In this document: positions 34,128 to 43,505 of the stretch, in pieces | Layout: every line of letters starts with the position of its first letter | Numbering within the stretch: position 1 is the stretch's first letter | Assembly: GCA_030427835.1 (NCBI GenBank) | Contig: JAUICN010000002.1 | Span: 124,001 to 188,000, forward strand | Direction: 5' to 3' | Length of the DNA stretch: 64,000 bases | Source of the DNA: Polyangia bacterium | GTDB taxonomy: Bacteria > Myxococcota_A > Polyangia > Polyangiales > JAUICN01 | Program-made: the position numbers and the translations under genes | The notes under the pieces: model-generated | What the model was told of the DNA's origin: nothing | Databases searched by the model: none | The model's input: the letters and a program-made list of their open reading frames with translations, nothing else

Positions 34128-34811
34128 CTACGCTGGAGCCCCGGGAACGGGTGGTGCGGCCTGGCCCGCCACAGCTTGCACGTTGACCTTGTCTCGATTA
34201 GCGACCACCAGATTCAGCACCTGAACAGAGGCGCTGTTAATGTCATCAATTACCTTTTGAGTTTTTCCGTTCAATGCAGCGAAGCCCATGAGGGCAATCA
34301 GCGCCGACATTAGGCCAAATGCGGTGCAGTTCATGGCTTCGGAAATACCCGCGGCAAGTGCGGCGGCCCGGGTTGCGGCATCGGCATTGGCGACCGCGCC
34401 GAAGGCCACGATGAGGCCGACCACCGTGCCCAGGAGGCCTGAAAGCATGGAAAGGTTGGCGAGCAGGGAAAGGTAGGGGGTGCGGGCCTCCACTTTGGGA
34501 AGTTCCTGGAGTGCGACTTCGTCCATGGAAGCTTGGACCTCTGCGTCGGGGCGATGCACCTTCACAAGGCCGCCTTTGACGATTCTGGCGAGGGGGGCGT
34601 TTGCTGCGGAACACAGTTTGATGGCCCTGGATACGTCGCCCGCGAGGATGCACTTCTGCATGGTTGCGAGGAAGACGTCCTTATTGATGGAGCTCCGGTA
34701 GAGGTAGACGGCCCTCTCTGCCACAAGCCCGATCGCGATGATGAGCCAGAACAGGATGCCGTACATCATCCAGCCACCTTCTTCAAAATGCTCAGCTAGA
34801 GTCGAAAACAT
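34128..34811 (-). CDS. exbB: ExbB/TolQ-family proton channel (leftward set)
   Basis: A 227-residue three-helix protein. Helix 1 is GILFWLIIAIGLVAERAVYLYRS. The cytosolic part contains AGDVSRAIKLCSAANAPLARIVKGGL, and the second and third helices lie in VEARTPYLSLLANLSMLSGLLGTVVGLIVAFGAV and ISEAMNCTAFGLMSALIALMGFAAL, with the conserved Thr/Ser channel residues. AAGGAG nine bases upstream of ATG 34811 is a strong ribosome site. It shares long near-identical blocks with the divergent exbB at 35215, so the two sets look like an old duplication. Pro/Ala tail at the C-terminus. Confidence 0.95.
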   Translation of the reverse strand: MFSTLAEHFEEGGWMMYGILFWLIIAIGLVAERAVYLYRSSINKDVFLATMQKCILAGDVSRAIKLCSAANAPLARIVKGGLVKVHRPDAEVQASMDEVALQELPKVEARTPYLSLLANLSMLSGLLGTVVGLIVAFGAVANADAATRAAALAAGISEAMNCTAFGLMSALIALMGFAALNGKTQKVIDDINSASVQVLNLVVANRDKVNVQAVAGQAAPPVPGAPA

Positions 34812-35214
34812 TCTACTTTTTCTCCTTGGGGGGGACCCCTATTTTGCCCTGGTTGCACCAGGAAACAGCCTGTTGAGTGGGGTAATCTCCCCGTATTTAG
34901 GTAGGGGGAGCTTCCGCGGACTCCGCGAATAGCGACTAGTGTGCCAGAAATCTGCCCAGGAATGCACGATTGTTGCAAAGGATTTGCTGGGCTGAAGTTT
35001 CGTTCACTGTGGCTCGCTTGGGACTAGAAGCCCCTGAAATTTCGCCCACACTGCATTTCCAGGGCCCCATTGTCCCCGGGTTCTTCCGGCATAGATTTAT
35101 GTGTTTTATTTCCAGTGCGGACATTCGTTGACAACGCTTTTGGCGTTGGGTTAGCTTCCTTGTCACGCAGAGGACACGGGAATTTTTTGGTCGTCGTCCG
35201 AGGAGCATCGATTC
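34812..35214. promoter_or_regulatory. 403-bp divergent region between two ExbB/ExbD sets
   Basis: No gene seen. It holds a short dyad, CTCCCC (34887-34892) with GGGGAG (34905-34910), an 8-bp palindrome TCCGCGGA (34913-34920) followed at once by a partial repeat TCCGCGA, and the promoter-like site at 35128-35156 for the rightward set. The promoter of the leftward set is probably near 34840-34900 but was not resolved. Confidence 0.45.
35128..35156 (+). promoter_or_regulatory. candidate sigma70-type promoter with internal dyad
   Basis: TTGACA (35128-35133), a 17-bp spacer and TTAGCT (35151-35156) lie 58 bp before the rightward exbB ATG. The spacer carries an inverted repeat CAACGC (35132-35137) / GCGTTG (35143-35148) that could bind a repressor. 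Confidence 0.4.
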
Positions 35215-35844
35215 ATGGAAAAAATTTGGGTTGCATTGGAAGAGGGAGCGCCTTTCAGCTTCATCAACATCGGGATTCTGGCTTTCGTGGTGGCAATCAT
35301 CATCGAACGCTTTGTATTCATTTTGACGAAGTATCGGGTGAATGCGCACGAGTTCATCGGTCAGTTGCGTAAGCTGATTCAGGCCGGGAACATTGACCGC
35401 GCCATCAAGCTTTGTGAGGCGGCAGCATTGCCGCTTCTACAGGTATGCCGAGCAGGCCTTACCCAGGTAAACCGGGGCGAGGACGCGGTTATTGCGGGGA
35501 TGGAAGAAAAAATGGGCGAAATCGTGCCGAAACTGGAGACTCGTACACCGTGGCTGTGGTCTCTTGCCAACATCGCGACCCTGATCGGCCTTTTGGGAAC
35601 GATTTCGGGTCTGATTAAGGCTTTCGGAGCTGTGGCCTTCGCGGCCCCGGCGGAACGCTCTACTTTGCTTTCAAAGGGTATTTCGGAAGCTATGTGGAAC
35701 ACCGCTCTCGGTTTGGGTATCGCGGTGACTTGCATGATTTTCCACTTGATCCTTCACACCATGTCCAAGGGCGTGAAGCACGATCTTGAGCATGCGACGA
35801 TGAAGTTGGAAAACCTCATTACACTGCGCCAAAAGGGCAACTAG
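35215..35844 (+). CDS. exbB: ExbB/TolQ-family proton channel (rightward set)
   Basis: A 209-residue three-helix protein. INIGILAFVVAIIIERFVFILT is helix 1; AGNIDRAIKLCEAAALPLLQVCRAGL is the cytosolic loop; LETRTPWLWSLANIATLIGLLGTISGLIKAFGAVAF and ISEAMWNTALGLGIAVTCMIFHLIL are helices 2 and 3. GAGGAG ten bases before the ATG supports this start. It closely resembles the leftward exbB and is followed by two exbD genes. Which outer partner it drives (TonB, Tol or an AgmX-type gliding protein) cannot be read from the sequence. Confidence 0.95.
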   Translation: MEKIWVALEEGAPFSFINIGILAFVVAIIIERFVFILTKYRVNAHEFIGQLRKLIQAGNIDRAIKLCEAAALPLLQVCRAGLTQVNRGEDAVIAGMEEKMGEIVPKLETRTPWLWSLANIATLIGLLGTISGLIKAFGAVAFAAPAERSTLLSKGISEAMWNTALGLGIAVTCMIFHLILHTMSKGVKHDLEHATMKLENLITLRQKGN

Positions 35845-35881
35845 GCCTTCCTAGGTTTATCTACCTTTACAGTACAAACCC

Positions 35882-36436
35882 ATGCCTGAGTTCACCCCAA
35901 GACAGCGTGCGTATATTAAGAAGCGCTCCGCGGTTCCCCATGTGGACCCCTCGGAGGAGGCGGGTGAGCTGAACATTATCCCTTTCCTGGATATTGTTGT
36001 GAACCTCATCATGTTTCTTTTGATGACGACCGCTTCGGTGTTGGCTGTGGTGCAAATCGAGACCGAATTGCCTTCCTACGGGGGCGGCGGAGGTGTCGGT
36101 GGCGGTGAGCCTGAAGAAAAGCTCAATCTGAATATTACGATTGTGAGCGAGGGCGTAATTGTCACGGGTTCTGGTGCCAAGCTTGCTCCAGGCTGTGAGA
36201 ACACCGCGGGTGGCCGTGTGATTACGGTGGCCCGTAAGGGGGACAGTTACGACTGGAACAGCCTTACGGAGTGTGTGGCGCGGGTGAAAAAGGAATATCC
36301 CAACGAAACCCAGGTGATTGTGAGCGCCGATCCTCTTATTGAGTACATCCATCTGGTGAATGCCATGGATGCGGTTCGGAAAAAGGATGACCAGGAGCTT
36401 TTCTCTGAAGTGCTTATTTCAGGCGGGGTACGCTGA
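35882..36436 (+). CDS. exbD: ExbD/TolR-family protein (rightward set, first ExbD)
   Basis: A 184-residue protein with a ~35-residue cytosolic start, membrane helix LNIIPFLDIVVNLIMFLLMT containing the conserved Asp, and a periplasmic domain with a Gly-rich entry (SYGGGGGVGGGEPEE). It ends YPNETQVIVSADPLIEYIHLVNAMDAV, the ExbD closing region. Two Cys in the periplasmic part (APGCENT ... LTECVARV) could form a disulfide. It follows exbB by 37 bp; its TGA overlaps the next ATG by one base (TGATG). Confidence 0.93.
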   Translation: MPEFTPRQRAYIKKRSAVPHVDPSEEAGELNIIPFLDIVVNLIMFLLMTTASVLAVVQIETELPSYGGGGGVGGGEPEEKLNLNITIVSEGVIVTGSGAKLAPGCENTAGGRVITVARKGDSYDWNSLTECVARVKKEYPNETQVIVSADPLIEYIHLVNAMDAVRKKDDQELFSEVLISGGVR

Positions 36437-37137
36437 TGGCCAAGGGTAAAAAGGGTAAGGGAAAATCGGGCAACGGAGAGAACTCCGATGTCGAAACCTC
36501 TGGCGGCGGTGAATCCGGCGCCAGCAGCGCTAGCATAGGAAGTGCAAGCTCTGGCAGTGGCTCTGGAGGAGGATCTTCGAGCCGTGCCCCTGGTGAAATC
36601 GCCACCATGGCCCAGTGCAAGGCCGTCATTCGACGTAAGCTTGGTAAGCACGAAGAGGAGATGGAGCTGGGTCTAAACATCTATCCGATGATGGATATGA
36701 TGACGATCCTTTTGGTGTTCCTCATCATGCAGTTCGCGAATGCCTCGGCGGATATTACGCAGAGCGAAGAGCTTCAGATCCCCTATTCGACGGCCCAGGA
36801 AGAACTACAGCAGGCCGTGCCGATTCAGGTGTCGCGTAATCAGATCGTGGTGGACGGCAAGGACGTGTTGAACCTTCGCGCGGGCCAAGTGGATGCGAGC
36901 CAGAAGCAGGGCGGGAGCACAGGATTTTTGGTTACGCCGCTGTTGAGGGTGATGGAGAAGCACCGAGATCGTTTGAAGAAGATTGCGGAGCGTGTGCCGA
37001 CCAAGCCCTTTACTGGTGAAGTTCAGGTGGTCGCGGACGCCCGTACTCCGTTTCGAACTTTGACAGAGCTTATCTACACGGTGGGCCAGGCGGAGTTCAA
37101 AACCATTCGCTTTATTGTGTTGAAGAAGGGTTCTTAG
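36436..37137 (+). CDS. exbD: ExbD/TolR-family protein (rightward set, second ExbD) with Ser/Gly-rich N-terminus
   Basis: A 233-residue ExbD-type protein with an unusually long cytosolic start: a Lys/Gly block (KGKKGKGKSGNG), then a Ser/Gly run (about 20-50), then KAVIRRKLGKHEEEMELG before the helix IYPMMDMMTILLVFLIMQFAN with the conserved Asp. The periplasmic part ends ADARTPFRTLTELIYTVGQAEFKTIRFIVL, the usual fold end. The Ser/Gly linker resembles tethers in gliding-motor ExbD relatives. Operon end; a weak 6-bp hairpin follows at 37165-37184. Confidence 0.92.
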   Translation: MAKGKKGKGKSGNGENSDVETSGGGESGASSASIGSASSGSGSGGGSSSRAPGEIATMAQCKAVIRRKLGKHEEEMELGLNIYPMMDMMTILLVFLIMQFANASADITQSEELQIPYSTAQEELQQAVPIQVSRNQIVVDGKDVLNLRAGQVDASQKQGGSTGFLVTPLLRVMEKHRDRLKKIAERVPTKPFTGEVQVVADARTPFRTLTELIYTVGQAEFKTIRFIVLKKGS

Positions 37138-37186: not shown

Positions 37187-39598
37187 CTATGGGGCTTTCT
37201 TTTTCGCTAGCCAAAATTGGCATCGTTCGATCCAGTCGGTGGTGATGGCGGTCCATGCGGGGTCGCCCCTGTGCTGATTCTTGATTGTGCGCCACGCTTC
37301 TAAGGACTCCCGCCATTGACCAGATTGGGCAAGTAGGTAGGCTTTCATCCTTTGTGCTTCCAACGTGAGTTCTGGTGCCATGAGGCCCAGACTTAGGCTT
37401 GCTTTCACGTTCCCTAGCGCGGACTGCAAGTCGTTCTCAACCATTTGGATGCGGGCAAGCATGTAGGAACCCAGGCCCAGTTCAGGAAAGTTGTGGGTGA
37501 GCCATTGGGCATGGACTGACCGAGTTGCCGCGGATTCAGTGGCATCTAGCAGAACCTTCGTGTGCTGAAGAAGGTTTGGATCGACAGCGCCGGTATCGTT
37601 TGCCGTAGTCCACGCCCATTGTCGAATGGCTTGGGCGCGCTGTTGATGGTTGGATATGTAGTTGTTTTGTTCGGTCCGTAGATGCGTAGTTTCCAGCGGT
37701 GCTACGCTTGTTTCGGTGACTGTTCCTTGGTCCATGTGGGCAACTGTTTGAATGCGACCCATCCGGTCAATTTGTTGTAACTCGTTAAGAAACATCCAGT
37801 CTGCGTTTTCTATCGCTGCGTTCCAGAGCGGTTGAATCAGTTGTCTGATCTGGGGCCATGGCAGGCTTTGCTTCTCAACATCCCAGTGGTTCTTTGTGAA
37901 CTCCCAGGGGCCAATCCTTGCTTGCAATCTCAGGTGTTCGGCGCGCCATCTTGGGTTGTGGCGATGCAGGTCGAGCAGCGCTCCGCAATACTCAAGCGCT
38001 TTGGTCATGTTTTGATCGACCGTGCTTGCCCTGTGCATTTTTGCCTCGATGACTGCGGTATGGTGAGGGCATTTTGCCTGTAGGATACCCGGTTGGTTGA
38101 ACCGATCCTGAGCCCAAGCGCTGGCCTGTTTGGGAAATGGCACGGTGCGGAGGTGGGCATGCCAGGCCTGCTCGAGATCGGGCAATGGCTTGCCTGTGGC
38201 CTGACTCAGGTTGTTGGTCTCGTATGTGGTGCGAAGCGCATTTGGGCCGTAGGTGTCGTGTACAAATCGTAGGAACGACCCGGTCGCCATGTAGGCGGTG
38301 TGATGTTGGGCCTTCCAGAACTCCAGGCCGGAAAGTTGTTGCAGGGGAGGGAGCCGTTTCAGGTCGAGGAGTGCCCGTGCCCATTGGTGGGGAGTCCATC
38401 CGTCGTCGGTCTGCCAGGTAAGGGCCACCGCTAGGCCTTCGATGAGGCTTGGGTTTGGGATCCATCCGCTTGCGGGGCCGGGCACGCGCCACGGCCCGGT
38501 TGCGGTGGCTGCAGCGACCACGTGTGCGATTTCGTGTTGTAGGACTGGATGGGGCCAATGGGTGCCGTGGATGTAGATTTCATTGCGCCAGGGTTTGGCC
38601 ACGTAGGTGCGGCCCGCGCCCATCCACTTGCCCTTTTGGCGGGCAGAATCGAATAGGTACACCCGGATGTTGCCAGGGCTCTGCACTCCCAAGCGCTGCT
38701 CCGCCTGATGGACGCGAAAGTCGCAATCGCTTGCGATGCGTTTGAGGTCATCTGCATCGGTGGTTGGATTGGCTACAATGGTGCAGCGTTCAGACTGTAC
38801 CGATTGCTTGAGCACCCGTGCAAGTTGGCCTGAGGTACTGCGGTGGTTGAGTCGATCCGCGAAAACAGTGGCTATTAGAAATAGGCTTGTACACAACGCG
38901 GCGCAGATCACAAATCCGATATGAACCGCAGTGGTTGATACTTTGGAGGGTTGTTGTGTAGCGTTGTTCGGGAGCTTGCTGTTCTTTCGTATCAACCAGG
39001 CTAGTGCTGGAATAGCGCACAGGGAAACAAGCCTGAACGTAAGGTACTGGGGTTCGATTTGTATGCCGCGGTCGTAGATGGGGCCTGGGAAGATGCCCAG
39101 AAGATGTCGCATGAAGAACACGCCAGGTGTGCCCCAGAACTCGATTCCCGCGGTGGCCAGGGAGATCACCGGTACCAGTGGTGCCAGCCATGGGCCCCAC
39201 CGAGGGAGATGAAGACCCAGTGCGGCCCCGAGGGTGACATTTAGTAGCGTAGAAATGCCTGGACCAAGCACCATCCAGAAAAAGCCTTGGAGAGGGTCGC
39301 ATAGGGGCACGCGCACCGCGTTGAGCCCAAGGATGAGGGTGGGTGTGCCCCACCAGAGTAGGGTACGAATGCCGATGCCGCGTAGGATGGACCGCAACGG
39401 CATACCAGAGCTGCTGGAGCCCTTGTTTTTGGTGGAAGTGGGTGCATGGGTGCGGGCCCAGCGGGCAGCCGCCCAGGCGGAGACCGGTGCGAGCAGGATA
39501 CCAAGTAACAGGGCCGCTTCTGGCCCGTAGGTTCCCACAAGAGGAGTAGCTGCCATTGCGCACCCGATGAGGGCCACCGCTAGCGTGATTGCAAACAC
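37187..39598 (-). CDS. Membrane metallopeptidase (peptidase MA-like) with TPR-like tail
   Basis: An 803-residue protein. Residues 1-245 hold about six to seven membrane helices. From 250 an outside domain follows with the gluzincin zinc site HEIAH (355-359) and a downstream Glu in SLIEGLAVAL (E387), the peptidase MA arrangement. From about 500 the sequence is helical and TPR-like (e.g. YMLARIQMVENDLQSALGNVKASLSLGLMAPE). The peptidase MA plus TPR pairing is usual for the family; the added polytopic front end is less so. Start is GTG at 39598 and it lies 56 bp after lon. The substrate is unknown; quality control of envelope proteins would fit the neighbour. Confidence 0.82.
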   Translation of the reverse strand: MFAITLAVALIGCAMAATPLVGTYGPEAALLLGILLAPVSAWAAARWARTHAPTSTKNKGSSSSGMPLRSILRGIGIRTLLWWGTPTLILGLNAVRVPLCDPLQGFFWMVLGPGISTLLNVTLGAALGLHLPRWGPWLAPLVPVISLATAGIEFWGTPGVFFMRHLLGIFPGPIYDRGIQIEPQYLTFRLVSLCAIPALAWLIRKNSKLPNNATQQPSKVSTTAVHIGFVICAALCTSLFLIATVFADRLNHRSTSGQLARVLKQSVQSERCTIVANPTTDADDLKRIASDCDFRVHQAEQRLGVQSPGNIRVYLFDSARQKGKWMGAGRTYVAKPWRNEIYIHGTHWPHPVLQHEIAHVVAAATATGPWRVPGPASGWIPNPSLIEGLAVALTWQTDDGWTPHQWARALLDLKRLPPLQQLSGLEFWKAQHHTAYMATGSFLRFVHDTYGPNALRTTYETNNLSQATGKPLPDLEQAWHAHLRTVPFPKQASAWAQDRFNQPGILQAKCPHHTAVIEAKMHRASTVDQNMTKALEYCGALLDLHRHNPRWRAEHLRLQARIGPWEFTKNHWDVEKQSLPWPQIRQLIQPLWNAAIENADWMFLNELQQIDRMGRIQTVAHMDQGTVTETSVAPLETTHLRTEQNNYISNHQQRAQAIRQWAWTTANDTGAVDPNLLQHTKVLLDATESAATRSVHAQWLTHNFPELGLGSYMLARIQMVENDLQSALGNVKASLSLGLMAPELTLEAQRMKAYLLAQSGQWRESLEAWRTIKNQHRGDPAWTAITTDWIERCQFWLAKKKAP

Positions 39599-39654: not shown

Positions 39655-42054
39655 TTAGGCGACGGCGCTGTGTTCCGGGTTTTGTTGGATGGGCAAACGT
39701 GGGTCTTCCGTAAGTACGACGGCAATGGCTTCTTCTACACGGTGGGTGAGAACGAACTTCATATCGTCGCGAATGTTTTTCGGGATTTCCTCGAGGTCTG
39801 GTTCGTTGCGGGCGGGGAGCACAATGGTTTTGATCCCAGCTCGGTGGGACGCCAGGCAACGCTGTTTGATACCGTTGACCGGTAGGAGATTTCCGCGGAG
39901 CGTAATCTCACCGATCATGGCCACGTCGGGGCGCACGGTGACGCCCGTGAGCATGGAGATCATGGACATGACAATGGCAACTCCTGTGGAAGGGCCGTCC
40001 TTGGGGAGGGCGCCCTGTGGAAAGTGCACATGTACGTCGATTTTTTCCAGGAAGTCCTCAGGTAAGCCCAGCTCGGTGGCACGAGTGCGCACGTAACTGA
40101 AGGATGTGGCCGCCGCCTCCTTGAGGATATTCCCCATGCTCCCAGTGAGGTGAATGCGCCCCTTACCAGGCATGCGAGAGGTTTCGACGAGCACAAGTTC
40201 TCCACCACGTTTGAGCCACACGAGGCTTGCGGCTACGCCTGGAGCGGGTCGACGTTCGGCTCGTTGCCCCGAGTGCCGTGGTGGCCCGAGAATTTCCTGG
40301 GCCTGTTCGGGCCCCACGAGAACTTCTTGGGTGTTGCCTTGCGCAAGTTCCACTGCGACATGACGGCATATGGAAGCAATCTTCTTTTCGAGGTTACGCA
40401 CCCCAGCTTCACGGGTGTAGTCTTCGATGATCGTGCGTACGCCTTCGTCCAGGAAATCTAGTGTTTCTGGGGTGAGGCCGTGTTCCGCGAGCTGTTTTGG
40501 AATGAGGAAATTGACCGCGATTTCAAACTTTTCATCCAGCGTATATCCGGCGATTTCAATCATCTCCATGCGGTCCCTGAGCGGTGCCGGAATCGTGTCC
40601 TGTCGGTTGGCTGTGCAAACAAACAACACCTGGCTAAGGTTCACGGAGACCTCAATGTAGTGATCCACAAAATCTTTGTTCTGCTGTGGATCCAAAACCT
40701 CTAGTAGGGCTGCTGCTGGGTCGCCGCGCTGGTTGCTGCCCAGTTTGTCCACTTCGTCGAGCAACATGACAGGGTTTTTCGACTGGGCCTTTTTGAGGCC
40801 GCCCACGATTCGACCGGGAAACGAGCCCACGTAGGTGCGTCGATGGCCACGGATTTCCCCTTCGTCATGAACCCCGCCTAGGGATACGCGAACAAAGCTG
40901 CGACCGGTGGCACGGGCGATGGATTTTGCGAGGGATGTCTTTCCAACCCCTGGGGGGCCCACGAGGCAAAGAATGGGCCCGCTCTTGTCGCTTCGGAGTT
41001 TTCGAACAGCCATGTATTCCACAATGCGACGTTTGATCTTTTCGAGCCCATGGTGGTCTTCGTCCAGTACTCGGCGTGCTTCCTTTACATCCAGCCTATC
41101 GGGTGTGGAGCGGTTCCAGGGGAGTTCCGTAAGCCATTCCACATATTGACGTGTGAGATGGTATTCGGATCCGGACGTTGCCATCGTGCGAAGTCGGGAG
41201 AGTTGACGCCTCGCTGCACGGTCTGCCTCCTTGGGGAGTTCTGCTTTGATGACCTGGTCCCGGAGTTGCTCCAGCTCGTCGTCCTCGTCGGTGGCTTCGC
41301 CAAGTTCCCTCCGAATACTTCGTAACTGTTGGCGCAATAAATATTCCCGTTGGGACCGGGACATTTCCTCCTGAACCATGGTGGAGATTTCACCCTTGAC
41401 CCGTAGGACCTCTCTTTGGCGGTTCACCAACTCAATGACTTTTCTAATGCGTGGTCGGATCTCGAGGAGTTCCATGACCTGCTGCTTTTGGTGTAGATCG
41501 ATGTTTAGGTTGGAGGCGATTAGATCGGATAGGGCAGCGGGGTGCTTGACGTTGTTGAGGGCCTTAAGGATTTCGTCGGCACGCCCTGGTATGGTTTCAA
41601 ACAGTTCCCGTGCGGACTGATGGAGGTGAGCGGCGAGCGCTTGCAGTTCTTCTTGGCTGTCTCCCCCAAGGTCCTCTAGGGAAAGGGGGGCAATACGTTC
41701 GACGGTGGCGCGAAGGCAGGGGTGGTGATCGATGCCCGCGGTGATGCGCATGCGGGCTGCGCCCTGAAGTACCACCGAGTAGGTACCGGAGCTGAGGCGT
41801 ATCACTTTAAGTACACGGGTTATGGTGCCGATGGAGTGTAGGTCCTCAAACTCGGGCTCCTCTACCTCGGGATCTCTTTGGGCAACCACACCGATGGTCG
41901 GGCGATTGTTTTCAAAAGCTTCCTCGATGAGTCGAACGGACCGAGGACGGCCCACGTTTACGGGCACCACGGAGGACGGAAACAGCACCGAGTTGCGCAG
42001 TGGAAGGATAGGGAGGGTGGCGAGTGTGCCCAGGGGTGGGATGGATTCAGACAT
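39655..42054 (-). CDS. lon: ATP-dependent protease Lon
   Basis: An AAA+ serine protease that degrades misfolded and regulatory proteins in the cytosol; 799 residues, normal for LonA. The N-terminal substrate domain begins LPILPLRNSVLFPSSVVPV. Walker A is GPPGVGKT (366-373), Walker B lies in PVMLLDEVDKL, and the sensor is LFVCTANRQDTIPAPLRDRME. The protease domain has catalytic Ser in PKDGPSTGVA (about 689) and catalytic Lys in PVNGIKQR (about 730). The usual GGLKEK is altered to NGIKQR, but Lys is kept. Myxobacteria often have two Lon copies; which this is cannot be told. Confidence 0.97.
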   Translation of the reverse strand: MSESIPPLGTLATLPILPLRNSVLFPSSVVPVNVGRPRSVRLIEEAFENNRPTIGVVAQRDPEVEEPEFEDLHSIGTITRVLKVIRLSSGTYSVVLQGAARMRITAGIDHHPCLRATVERIAPLSLEDLGGDSQEELQALAAHLHQSARELFETIPGRADEILKALNNVKHPAALSDLIASNLNIDLHQKQQVMELLEIRPRIRKVIELVNRQREVLRVKGEISTMVQEEMSRSQREYLLRQQLRSIRRELGEATDEDDELEQLRDQVIKAELPKEADRAARRQLSRLRTMATSGSEYHLTRQYVEWLTELPWNRSTPDRLDVKEARRVLDEDHHGLEKIKRRIVEYMAVRKLRSDKSGPILCLVGPPGVGKTSLAKSIARATGRSFVRVSLGGVHDEGEIRGHRRTYVGSFPGRIVGGLKKAQSKNPVMLLDEVDKLGSNQRGDPAAALLEVLDPQQNKDFVDHYIEVSVNLSQVLFVCTANRQDTIPAPLRDRMEMIEIAGYTLDEKFEIAVNFLIPKQLAEHGLTPETLDFLDEGVRTIIEDYTREAGVRNLEKKIASICRHVAVELAQGNTQEVLVGPEQAQEILGPPRHSGQRAERRPAPGVAASLVWLKRGGELVLVETSRMPGKGRIHLTGSMGNILKEAAATSFSYVRTRATELGLPEDFLEKIDVHVHFPQGALPKDGPSTGVAIVMSMISMLTGVTVRPDVAMIGEITLRGNLLPVNGIKQRCLASHRAGIKTIVLPARNEPDLEEIPKNIRDDMKFVLTHRVEEAIAVVLTEDPRLPIQQNPEHSAVA

Positions 42055-42449
42055 GGGCTTGCAGCAAATACGCTAACATAGGTGCCCTTGGGGCTGAACA
42101 GAAAGTGTACTGAACAGATGTAGTGAAAGGGTGGCTTTCCGGCGTTTCTTTTTCGTTCGATCCTTGGTGCGTCACCTGCTAGATAAGCGCCGGTCCTGCA
42201 GTTGGGGGCTGTGTTGTTTTGGGTATTGGGACTGGGTGGGTTTTGGTCGAAATCTTGTTCCGCCCTCTGGGCTTGCTTAGGATGTCTAAGTCCAATCACG
42301 GTTGAAAGGCTTGATGTGTCGTTTTTAGGCAATTTGGTTGTACTCGCTCTTACTCTCGGAATTTTTGTGGGGACCCTGTCCTTGGGCCGCAGATCTGCGG
42401 GTACCCAGTCAGCCACGACCCGGCAATAGGCCCCTAACAAGCGCAGGAC
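42055..42449. promoter_or_regulatory. 395-bp divergent region between lon and the RelA/SpoT-like gene
   Basis: Probably the promoters of both genes. Direct repeats CTGAACAG occur at 42094-42101 and 42110-42117, 16 bp apart, on the lon side, and might be an operator. An open frame of 75 codons (42202-42429, +) with one hydrophobic stretch has no ribosome site and no family resemblance; I do not call it. No terminator or RNA gene seen. Confidence 0.4.
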
Positions 42450-43505
42450 GTGGCGGACTACAAGCATCTCGATGCGCTCTCCCTTGCTGACCTGGAGGGG
42501 ATCCGTTTGCTGCTGCGCGGTGGTTCGGTGGTGGATTGGCACCGGCTGAACTTCTCGGGGCAGGAAGAGGTCATGGCGTTTCTTCGTTCCCTTGAGTTTG
42601 ATTGGGGGCACGAGGCGGATCGGGTTCGTGCCGAGCACCTGAAGGTGCTGGCGATGGAGTATCTGAAGAGGAATTTTGATTTTCCGATTCCTCGACCGGT
42701 GCAGGAGTTGCCGGTTCCCGAACTACTGATGTTGGCGTCTGGTAAGGGGCACCGGCAGATATGTGCCTGCACGATTCTGAAGGTGATGCATATCATCTTG
42801 CATCTTGAGGCACGGGAGCTTTTGTTTCTGCTTCCGGTTTCTGATCAGGAGGTGTTTCACCTTGTTGAACAGAAGGTGTATCGGGTGATTGGGCAGATGC
42901 TTTCCCAGGGGCTGCCTATTCAGGAGTTCATTGGAGGAAGAAAGAATCGCGATTCGGTGTACACCAAGCTGCTGTCTAAACAGGACACTGTGGCGGCCCG
43001 AATCTACGACAAGTTGCGATTTCGGATTGTCACTCGGTCCTACGACGAGGTGTTTCCGGTACTTAGCTATTTGGTTCGTACAGTATTTCCGTTCAACTAT
43101 GTGATCCCTGGGGAGTCCACGAATACACTCCTAAACTTTCGAGAGTATTGTGAACAGTGGCCCAAGCTGAATGCACTTGTTCCTCAGCTTCAGTTGCCTC
43201 CAGGGCTTGAGGAATCCACCGTTCATTTGGACAATCGGTTTTCTGCCCCGAACTACCGCATTGTTCATTTTGTGGTGGATATTCCAGTGCGTTTGCCAGA
43301 TGTGCTTTTAGACAACGCGCCTCCTGCTGCGGCTTCTTTGGGGCGCGTGGTGTTTGCGCAGGCAGAATTTCAGGTCATCGACCGTACGACGGAACAGAAC
43401 AACGAGATGGGTGATGCAAGTCACGCTAGCTACAAAGATAGGCAGCGGCGTGCGGTGATGCGACGCCTCAAGGTGGGTCTTGAGTTGCCTGACCCAAAGG
43501 AATGA
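42450..43505 (+). CDS. Divergent RelA/SpoT-like synthetase-domain protein (possibly the TIGR04552 family)
   Basis: A 351-residue cytosolic protein. It looks like the uncharacterised myxobacterial family I recall as TIGR04552. Four stretches line up in order with the (p)ppGpp synthetase domain: RKNRDSVYTKLLSKQ (164-178; cf. the R-x-K-x-x-x-S-I-x-x-K substrate loop), IYDKLRFRIV (185-194; cf. I-x-D-l-x-g-x-R-v), NYRIVHFVVDI (268-278; cf. gY-x-s-x-H) and AEFQVID...GDASHASYK (305-329; cf. E-v-Q-i-R-T ... G-x-A-a-H-w-x-Y-K). Catalytic Glu and the late His-x-x-Tyr-Lys are kept, the R-T is I-D. An N-terminal helical part replaces the hydrolase. Start GTG; the 3' end overlaps the convergent kinase by 38 bp. 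Confidence 0.72.
   Translation: MADYKHLDALSLADLEGIRLLLRGGSVVDWHRLNFSGQEEVMAFLRSLEFDWGHEADRVRAEHLKVLAMEYLKRNFDFPIPRPVQELPVPELLMLASGKGHRQICACTILKVMHIILHLEARELLFLLPVSDQEVFHLVEQKVYRVIGQMLSQGLPIQEFIGGRKNRDSVYTKLLSKQDTVAARIYDKLRFRIVTRSYDEVFPVLSYLVRTVFPFNYVIPGESTNTLLNFREYCEQWPKLNALVPQLQLPPGLEESTVHLDNRFSAPNYRIVHFVVDIPVRLPDVLLDNAPPAAASLGRVVFAQAEFQVIDRTTEQNNEMGDASHASYKDRQRRAVMRRLKVGLELPDPKE

What the first reader, a model, noticed from the sequence alone, without database searches (positions are those of the whole stretch)
42450..43505. An uncharacterised myxobacterial family may be a divergent RelA/SpoT synthetase
Four motif blocks fall in the correct order and spacing for a (p)ppGpp synthetase domain, including a kept Glu in EFQVID and a kept GDASHASYK end like G-x-A-A-H-W-x-Y-K. 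The R-T after E-x-Q is I-D, and the hydrolase half is replaced by a different helical N-terminus. It could make a modified alarmone, act as a toxin-like synthetase, or be an inactive sensor.
Basis: partly seen in the sequence, partly recalled or inferred. Interest (0 to 1): 0.75.

Follow-up and report, generated by a model that had tools for sequence, protein, structure and literature searches.

The report
Divergent RelA-like enzyme with membrane partner
A gene that almost every relative of this bacterium carries once encodes a remote cousin of the enzymes that make the starvation signal ppGpp, with the ATP-using half of the active site fully preserved, the other half changed, and a previously unnoticed tiny membrane protein encoded right beside it.

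Summary
ORF 42450-43505 (351 aa) belongs to the unnamed NCBIfam family TIGR04552. Residues 130-335 have the (p)ppGpp-synthetase (SYNTH) fold; all leading sequence and structure matches are RelA/SpoT-type enzymes. In 104 non-redundant relatives the ATP-binding and metal residues (RelSeq K243, S247, K251, D264, R269, E323, Q325) are essentially invariant, and the G-loop aromatic is almost always kept. Residues that hold the acceptor's phosphates (K304, and by one alignment R295/K297) are gone in the window's clade, and the RT after ExQ is xD in all. The N-terminal ~130 residues are a different helical domain with no PDB match. The gene is chromosomal, single-copy in 37 of 38 same-order genomes, beside one canonical Rel, with no plasmid or viral-contig hit: not toxin-like. 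I also found a conserved, apparently uncharacterised ~60-aa membrane or lipoprotein-like ORF just upstream (window ~42211-42429), present in 69 of 72 same-order genomes and adjacent in 55 of 61 where both positions are known. Best reading: an active housekeeping pyrophosphotransferase with an altered acceptor site, linked to the membrane. Activity and acceptor are untested.

The parts
42450..43505 (+). TIGR04552-family gene, 351 aa, GTG start
42450..42836 (+). N-terminal helical domain (residues 1-129), family-specific, conserved G24, S26, D29, C107, H114, H118
42837..43454 (+). SYNTH (pyrophosphokinase) domain, residues 130-335
42927..42980 (+). ATP-donor loop, residues 160-177: K165, S169, K173, K177 (RelSeq K243, S247, K251, K255)
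43008..43025 (+). metal site D187 (RelSeq D264) and R192 (R269)
43107..43127 (+). acceptor-loop segment P220-T226 (PGESTNT), basic residues lost relative to PGRIKDY and to clade II PSRSRNT
   Evidence: alignment of this loop is uncertain
43233..43268 (+). G-loop: N262 to H273, with Y269 and H273 equivalent to RelSeq Y308 and H312
43365..43382 (+). EFQVID: E306 and Q308 (RelSeq E323, Q325); D311 replaces T328
43410..43445 (+). GDASHASYKDRQ end motif (H325, Y328, K329, R331, Q332)
42211..42429 (+). Conserved small membrane or lipoprotein-like ORF, up to 72 aa (start uncertain: GTG 42211 or TTG 42202); core 42322-42399
   Evidence: codon-position test 28/13/59%
39655..42054 (-). lon protease gene, divergent neighbour (context, in 37 of 80 named loci)

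Best explanation
The gene encodes a catalytically competent member of the RelA/SpoT-homologue (SYNTH) superfamily that moves pyrophosphate from ATP to an acceptor. The donor half (ATP triphosphate Lys and Ser, metal Asp and Glu) is intact and invariant. The acceptor half is remodelled: the G-loop aromatic stays, but residues that hold the 5' phosphates of GDP/GTP in ppGpp synthetases are not retained in this clade, so the acceptor is probably not handled as in RelA or RelQ. It serves as a chromosomal housekeeping enzyme beside one canonical bifunctional Rel. The new N-terminal helical domain, and a ~60-residue membrane protein encoded just upstream, probably tether or regulate it. Shown here: homology, predicted fold, residue conservation, distribution, gene adjacency. 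Inferred: that it is active, that the acceptor differs, and that the membrane protein is its partner.
For: Fold: AlphaFold2 pLDDT 89.3 and pTM 0.87; the 35 PDB matches at E <= 1e-3 are RSH enzymes; RelQ Z 11.6 over 145 residues versus about 6 for DNA polymerases. Sequence. Donor and metal residues kept in at least 103 of 104 non-redundant members; 12 of 14 family-invariant aligned sites are Rel-invariant. Acceptor changes. Core single-copy distribution. Canonical Rel in the same genome. Small neighbour. Precedent for acceptor change with a reduced basic patch: FaRel2, PMC11782079.
Against: No activity data. RelSeq R241 is not retained at its aligned site (G in most, with R164 next to it). The G-loop Tyr is Phe in about a fifth of members, and Tyr-to-Phe impairs FaRel2. 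H312 is N or Q in some lineages. The acceptor loop is hard to align: hhalign would pair R231 with K297. The small gene is unlinked in 6 of 61 genomes and was not detected beside clade II.
Confidence: 0.55

Rival explanations
1. It is an ordinary alarmone synthetase: it makes (p)ppGpp or pGpp with a divergent loop, and the N-terminal domain and small membrane protein give the stringent response a second input.
For: Donor and metal site intact and G-loop Tyr and His present in most members. Best structural matches are the alarmone synthetases RelQ and RelP. The canonical Rel in the genome has an HD hydrolase that could remove the product. R231, or R270, could replace the lost lysines.
Against: K304 is S or T in all members; R295/K297 equivalents are Q/E and T/I in the window's clade although RR in clade II; the RT of ExQxRT is lost in every member.
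Confidence: 0.27
2. It is a pseudo-enzyme: a SYNTH fold that only binds a nucleotide and reports it to a partner, perhaps the small membrane protein.
For: ExQxRT is broken in every member and acceptor residues are lost. It coexists with an intact Rel.
Against: Both metal ligands and the full triphosphate-binding set are invariant down to about 26% identity and across two old clades; a pure sensor would not need them.
Confidence: 0.1
3. It is a toxSAS-type toxin or defence effector that pyrophosphorylates tRNA or makes (p)ppApp, held in check by a neighbour.
For: Reduced acceptor-phosphate site resembles FaRel2; a small conserved protein is encoded next to it.
Against: Single-copy and near-universal in the order; no plasmid or viral-contig copies; no PADLOC match; the neighbour is a membrane-type peptide, not a known antitoxin fold family by Pfam or NCBIfam, and in 6 genomes it is unlinked.
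Confidence: 0.08

Closest known systems
NCBIfam TIGR04552 / TIGR04562 ('TIGR04552 family protein')
   Same: Full-length member (E 8e-103 and 1e-98).
   Different: The NCBIfam models carry no function in their name; the RSH link, the clade split and the small neighbour are added here.
Small alarmone synthetases RelQ / RelP (YjbM, YwaC)
   Same: SYNTH fold, Z 11.6 (5ded) and about 10 (6fgk, 6ewz); donor Lys/Ser, metal Asp and Glu, G-loop Tyr.
   Different: Extra ~130-residue N-terminal domain, longer acceptor loop, lost K304 equivalent, ExQxRT changed to ExQxxD.
Long RSH Rel / RelA / SpoT (RelSeq 1vj7)
   Same: Top sequence-profile match, same order of motifs.
   Different: No HD hydrolase, TGS or ACT domain matched; the genome has a separate canonical Rel.
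toxSAS (FaRel2, CapRel, Tas1)
   Same: Same fold; FaRel2 donor residues K66, S70, K74, D90 have equivalents; weakened acceptor-phosphate site.
   Different: Core, single-copy, non-mobile gene without a known antitoxin; lower structural similarity (CapRel Z 6.6, Tas1 Z 6.0).

Membership tests
TIGR04552 (NCBIfam) | Score above the curated cut-off over the full model | tested here: met
   344.4 bits against 125, model 2-350 of 352
RSH / SYNTH superfamily | SYNTH nucleotidyltransferase fold | tested here: met
RSH / SYNTH superfamily | Pfam PF04607 match above the gathering score | tested here: inconclusive
   Window 21.8 bits against 27; 37 of 38 members match weakly; some relatives pass 27
RSH / SYNTH superfamily | ATP-donor Lys/Ser and metal Asp/Glu | tested here: met
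   K165, S169, K173, D187, E306 kept in at least 103 of 104
RSH / SYNTH superfamily | G-loop aromatic residue | tested here: met
   Y 83, F 20, other 1
(p)ppGpp synthetase | Acceptor-phosphate basic residues (RelSeq K304, and R295/K297) | tested here: not met
   K304 is S/T in all; R295/K297 sites are Q/E and T/I in the window's clade; loop alignment uncertain for K297
(p)ppGpp synthetase | ExQxRT motif | tested here: not met
   ExQ kept, RT replaced by hydrophobic-D in all members read
(p)ppGpp synthetase | Makes (p)ppGpp | not testable with these tools
   needs a biochemical assay
Long RSH (Rel/RelA/SpoT) | HD, TGS and ACT domains | tested here: not met
   351 aa; only RelA_SpoT matched in Pfam up to E 10
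toxSAS toxin-antitoxin | Linked neutralising antitoxin | tested here: inconclusive
   A small conserved ORF is adjacent but matches no known family
toxSAS toxin-antitoxin | Patchy, mobile distribution | tested here: not met
   37 of 38 order genomes, single copy; no plasmid or viral-contig hit
toxSAS toxin-antitoxin | Toxic when expressed alone | not testable with these tools
   needs expression in a laboratory strain

The most novel reading that the evidence does not exclude
A non-toxin, housekeeping pyrophosphotransferase branch of the RSH superfamily that acts on an acceptor other than GDP/GTP (an RNA 3' end or another nucleotide) and is controlled at the membrane by a new ~60-residue partner protein.
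Probability: 0.33. Interest if true: 0.82.

Novelty: new variant of a known kind. Interest (0 to 1): 0.62.

Why it matters
The 2011 RSH survey was seeded from Pfam PF04607 (PMC3153485), which this family mostly falls below, so a near-universal second SYNTH protein of a whole bacterial order may have gone uncounted. If it is active, these bacteria have a second nucleotide-signalling or RNA-modifying enzyme beside Rel, in a phylum known for starvation-driven development and predation. The conserved small membrane protein next to it gives a directly testable partner and a possible membrane input.

Tried and rejected
Remnant HD hydrolase in the N-terminal half: no Pfam HD match and no PDB fold match; I treat it as a different domain, although a missing match is not proof. 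Defence or toxin-antitoxin system: no PADLOC match, no mobile context. Phage origin: the only phage hit (MW495066) carries fabI, engB, glyS, secDF, acpS and scpA/B, so it is a bacterial contig. Functional link to lon: lon is close in 37 of 80 named loci only, and another group of about 23 loci has a DUF507 gene downstream instead, so I keep both as context. RNA family, tRNA or sigma-70 promoter in the intergenic space: none found. Literature: one paper mentions TIGR04552 and none TIGR04562. Whether Myxococcus xanthus carries the gene could not be checked because the genomes searched are unnamed. BFVD viral structures: no match at E <= 1e-3. Distribution outside Myxococcota could not be surveyed.

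Full report
Observation. The ORF at 42450-43505 (+), 351 aa, is real and belongs to the unnamed NCBIfam families TIGR04552 (E 8e-103) and TIGR04562 (E 1e-98). Against Pfam it has one match, RelA_SpoT, E 2.4e-4, 21.8 bits against a gathering score of 27. 37 of 38 relatives give the same Pfam family, and some pass the cut-off.

Homology and fold. A profile of the family searched against the PDB ranks RelSeq (E 3e-4), B. subtilis Rel, S. aureus Rel and YwaC on top, with K243, S247, K251, D264, R269, E323, Q325 and the AHxxYK end in register. A family profile against canonical Rel synthetase domains aligns 163 columns, probability 95, score 46.7; 100 column-shuffled controls reach at most 11.2. 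AlphaFold2 with 36 relatives gives pLDDT 89.3 and pTM 0.87. The 35 PDB matches at E <= 1e-3 are RelP, RelQ, Rel, RelA or close relatives. VIA-align gives Z 11.6, 3.3 A over 145 residues to RelQ, model residues 130-330, against about 6 for DNA polymerases; CapRel and Tas1 score 6.6 and 6.0.

Active site. Over 104 non-redundant members (153 full-length), K165, K173 and R192 are invariant; S169 and D187 are each kept in 103; E306, Q308 and D311 in all 103 members that reach there. These are RelSeq K243, K251, R269, S247, D264, E323, Q325 and T328, so the donor and metal sites are preserved. FaRel2 uses K66, S70, K74 and D90 for ATP and Mg with matching spacing (PMC11782079). Of 14 family-invariant aligned sites, 12 are Rel-invariant and 11 carry the same residue (hypergeometric P 0.0014). 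The G-loop aromatic is Y or F in 103 of 104. R241 is not retained at its aligned site; an Arg sits one residue later (R164) in most of clade I.

Acceptor side. K304 is S or T in all members. A midpoint-rooted tree splits the family into two clades: clade II (10 sequences) has R and R at the sites aligned with R295/K297, while clade I, the window's (94), has Q/E and mostly T/I/V. This loop is hard to align: hhalign would instead pair R231 with K297 and N262 with N306. Four genomes carry one member of each clade.

N-terminal domain. Residues 1-129 are helical, with G24, S26, D29, C107, H114 and H118 nearly invariant, clade II included. Predicted alone (residues 1-153, pLDDT 81, pTM 0.69) it has no PDB match better than E 2.4 and a best Z of 4.7.

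Distribution. Single copy in 37 of 38 genomes of the order, and in 32 of 32 of good quality; 229 of 379 genomes across the phylum. All 77 order genomes searched match PF04607, 76 above the cut-off; the window's genome has one canonical Rel with HD and EVQIRT motifs. Genome sizes and named loci suggest that the order is Polyangiales (inference). No plasmid and no viral-contig relative was found. A Bdellovibrio member is annotated in PMC9888234, and a member lies on a bacterial contig filed as a Microcystis phage.

A new small neighbour. While checking for an antitoxin I found that the short ORF just upstream (window about 42211-42429, core 42322-42399) is conserved at protein level: MKLTPWYLAALAPIAVAGC-SGAL-GHVAVLAVTIGIFVGTLSLGR and variants, about 60 aa. 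Differences between related copies fall 28/13/59% on codon positions 1/2/3, as in coding DNA. It lies upstream on the same strand within 12-569 bp in 106 of 161 loci (some loci are duplicates of one another) and is found in 69 of 72 order genomes (the window copy is part of that model). Comparing coordinates by hand across, it is adjacent to the TIGR04552 gene in 55 of the 61 genomes where both places are known, and unlinked in 6. It has no significant Pfam or NCBIfam match. 53 of 63 scorable copies have a lipobox-like Cys; positive charges sit at the N-terminus and in the tail, and almost none between the hydrophobic segments. This fits a lipoprotein or a two-helix membrane hairpin. In the window the second hydrophobic segment and GTLSLGR are clear, while the N-terminal part is diverged and the start codon is uncertain. 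It was not found beside clade II or the more distant clade I members.

Other context. lon is a close, usually divergent neighbour in 37 of 80 named loci; in another group of about 23 loci a DUF507 gene follows. A Ser/Thr kinase gene converges on the 3' end and overlaps it by 38 bp.

Interpretation. Shown: superfamily membership by fold and sequence, preserved donor and metal site, altered acceptor loop, core distribution, adjacency to a new small protein. Inferred: activity, a changed acceptor, membrane-linked regulation. toxSAS work gives a precedent: a smaller positive patch on the acceptor side goes with the absence of alarmone synthesis and the use of tRNA in FaRel2 (PMC11782079). Unlike toxSAS, this gene behaves as a core gene. 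I therefore file it as a divergent member of the SYNTH superfamily and not as a (p)ppGpp synthetase, since two features of that group were tested and not met.

Limits. No activity data; no model coordinates for residue superposition; anonymous genomes that prevented checking Myxococcus xanthus by name; distribution outside the phylum not surveyed.

Noticed in passing
window 42211-42429 (+); L054:7306-7494, L103:3727-3912 and about 100 other loci: Conserved ~60-aa membrane or lipoprotein-like ORF (core GIFVGTLSLGR) next to the TIGR04552 gene, with no Pfam or NCBIfam family.
   Followed up: partly
L173 (GenBank MW495066.1, 'Microcystis phage MaAM05'): The record is filed as a phage but this stretch carries fabI, engB, glyS, secDF, acpS and scpA/B, so it looks like a bacterial contig; it holds a TIGR04562 member.
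   Followed up: partly
PMC9888234, Bdellovibrio sp. NC01 DOE51_RS08710: A one-base deletion in a TIGR04552 family gene is listed among the mutations of one of six populations evolved with prey; the gene may be dispensable or under selection there.
   Followed up: no
genomes G171, G189, G234, G374 (L174-L175, L178-L179, L196-L199): Each carries two paralogues, one of each clade of the family.
   Followed up: partly
window 37187-39598 (-): 803-aa protein with no Pfam match whose relatives lie beside lon in about 28 named loci.
   Followed up: no
window 34128-37137: Two MotA/TolQ/ExbB-type genes in divergent orientation (34128-34811 - and 35215-35844 +), the second followed by an ExbD/TolR gene.
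   Followed up: no
L095:9304-9861 and about 22 other loci: A DUF507 gene follows the TIGR04552 gene on the same strand in a subgroup of loci.
   Followed up: partly
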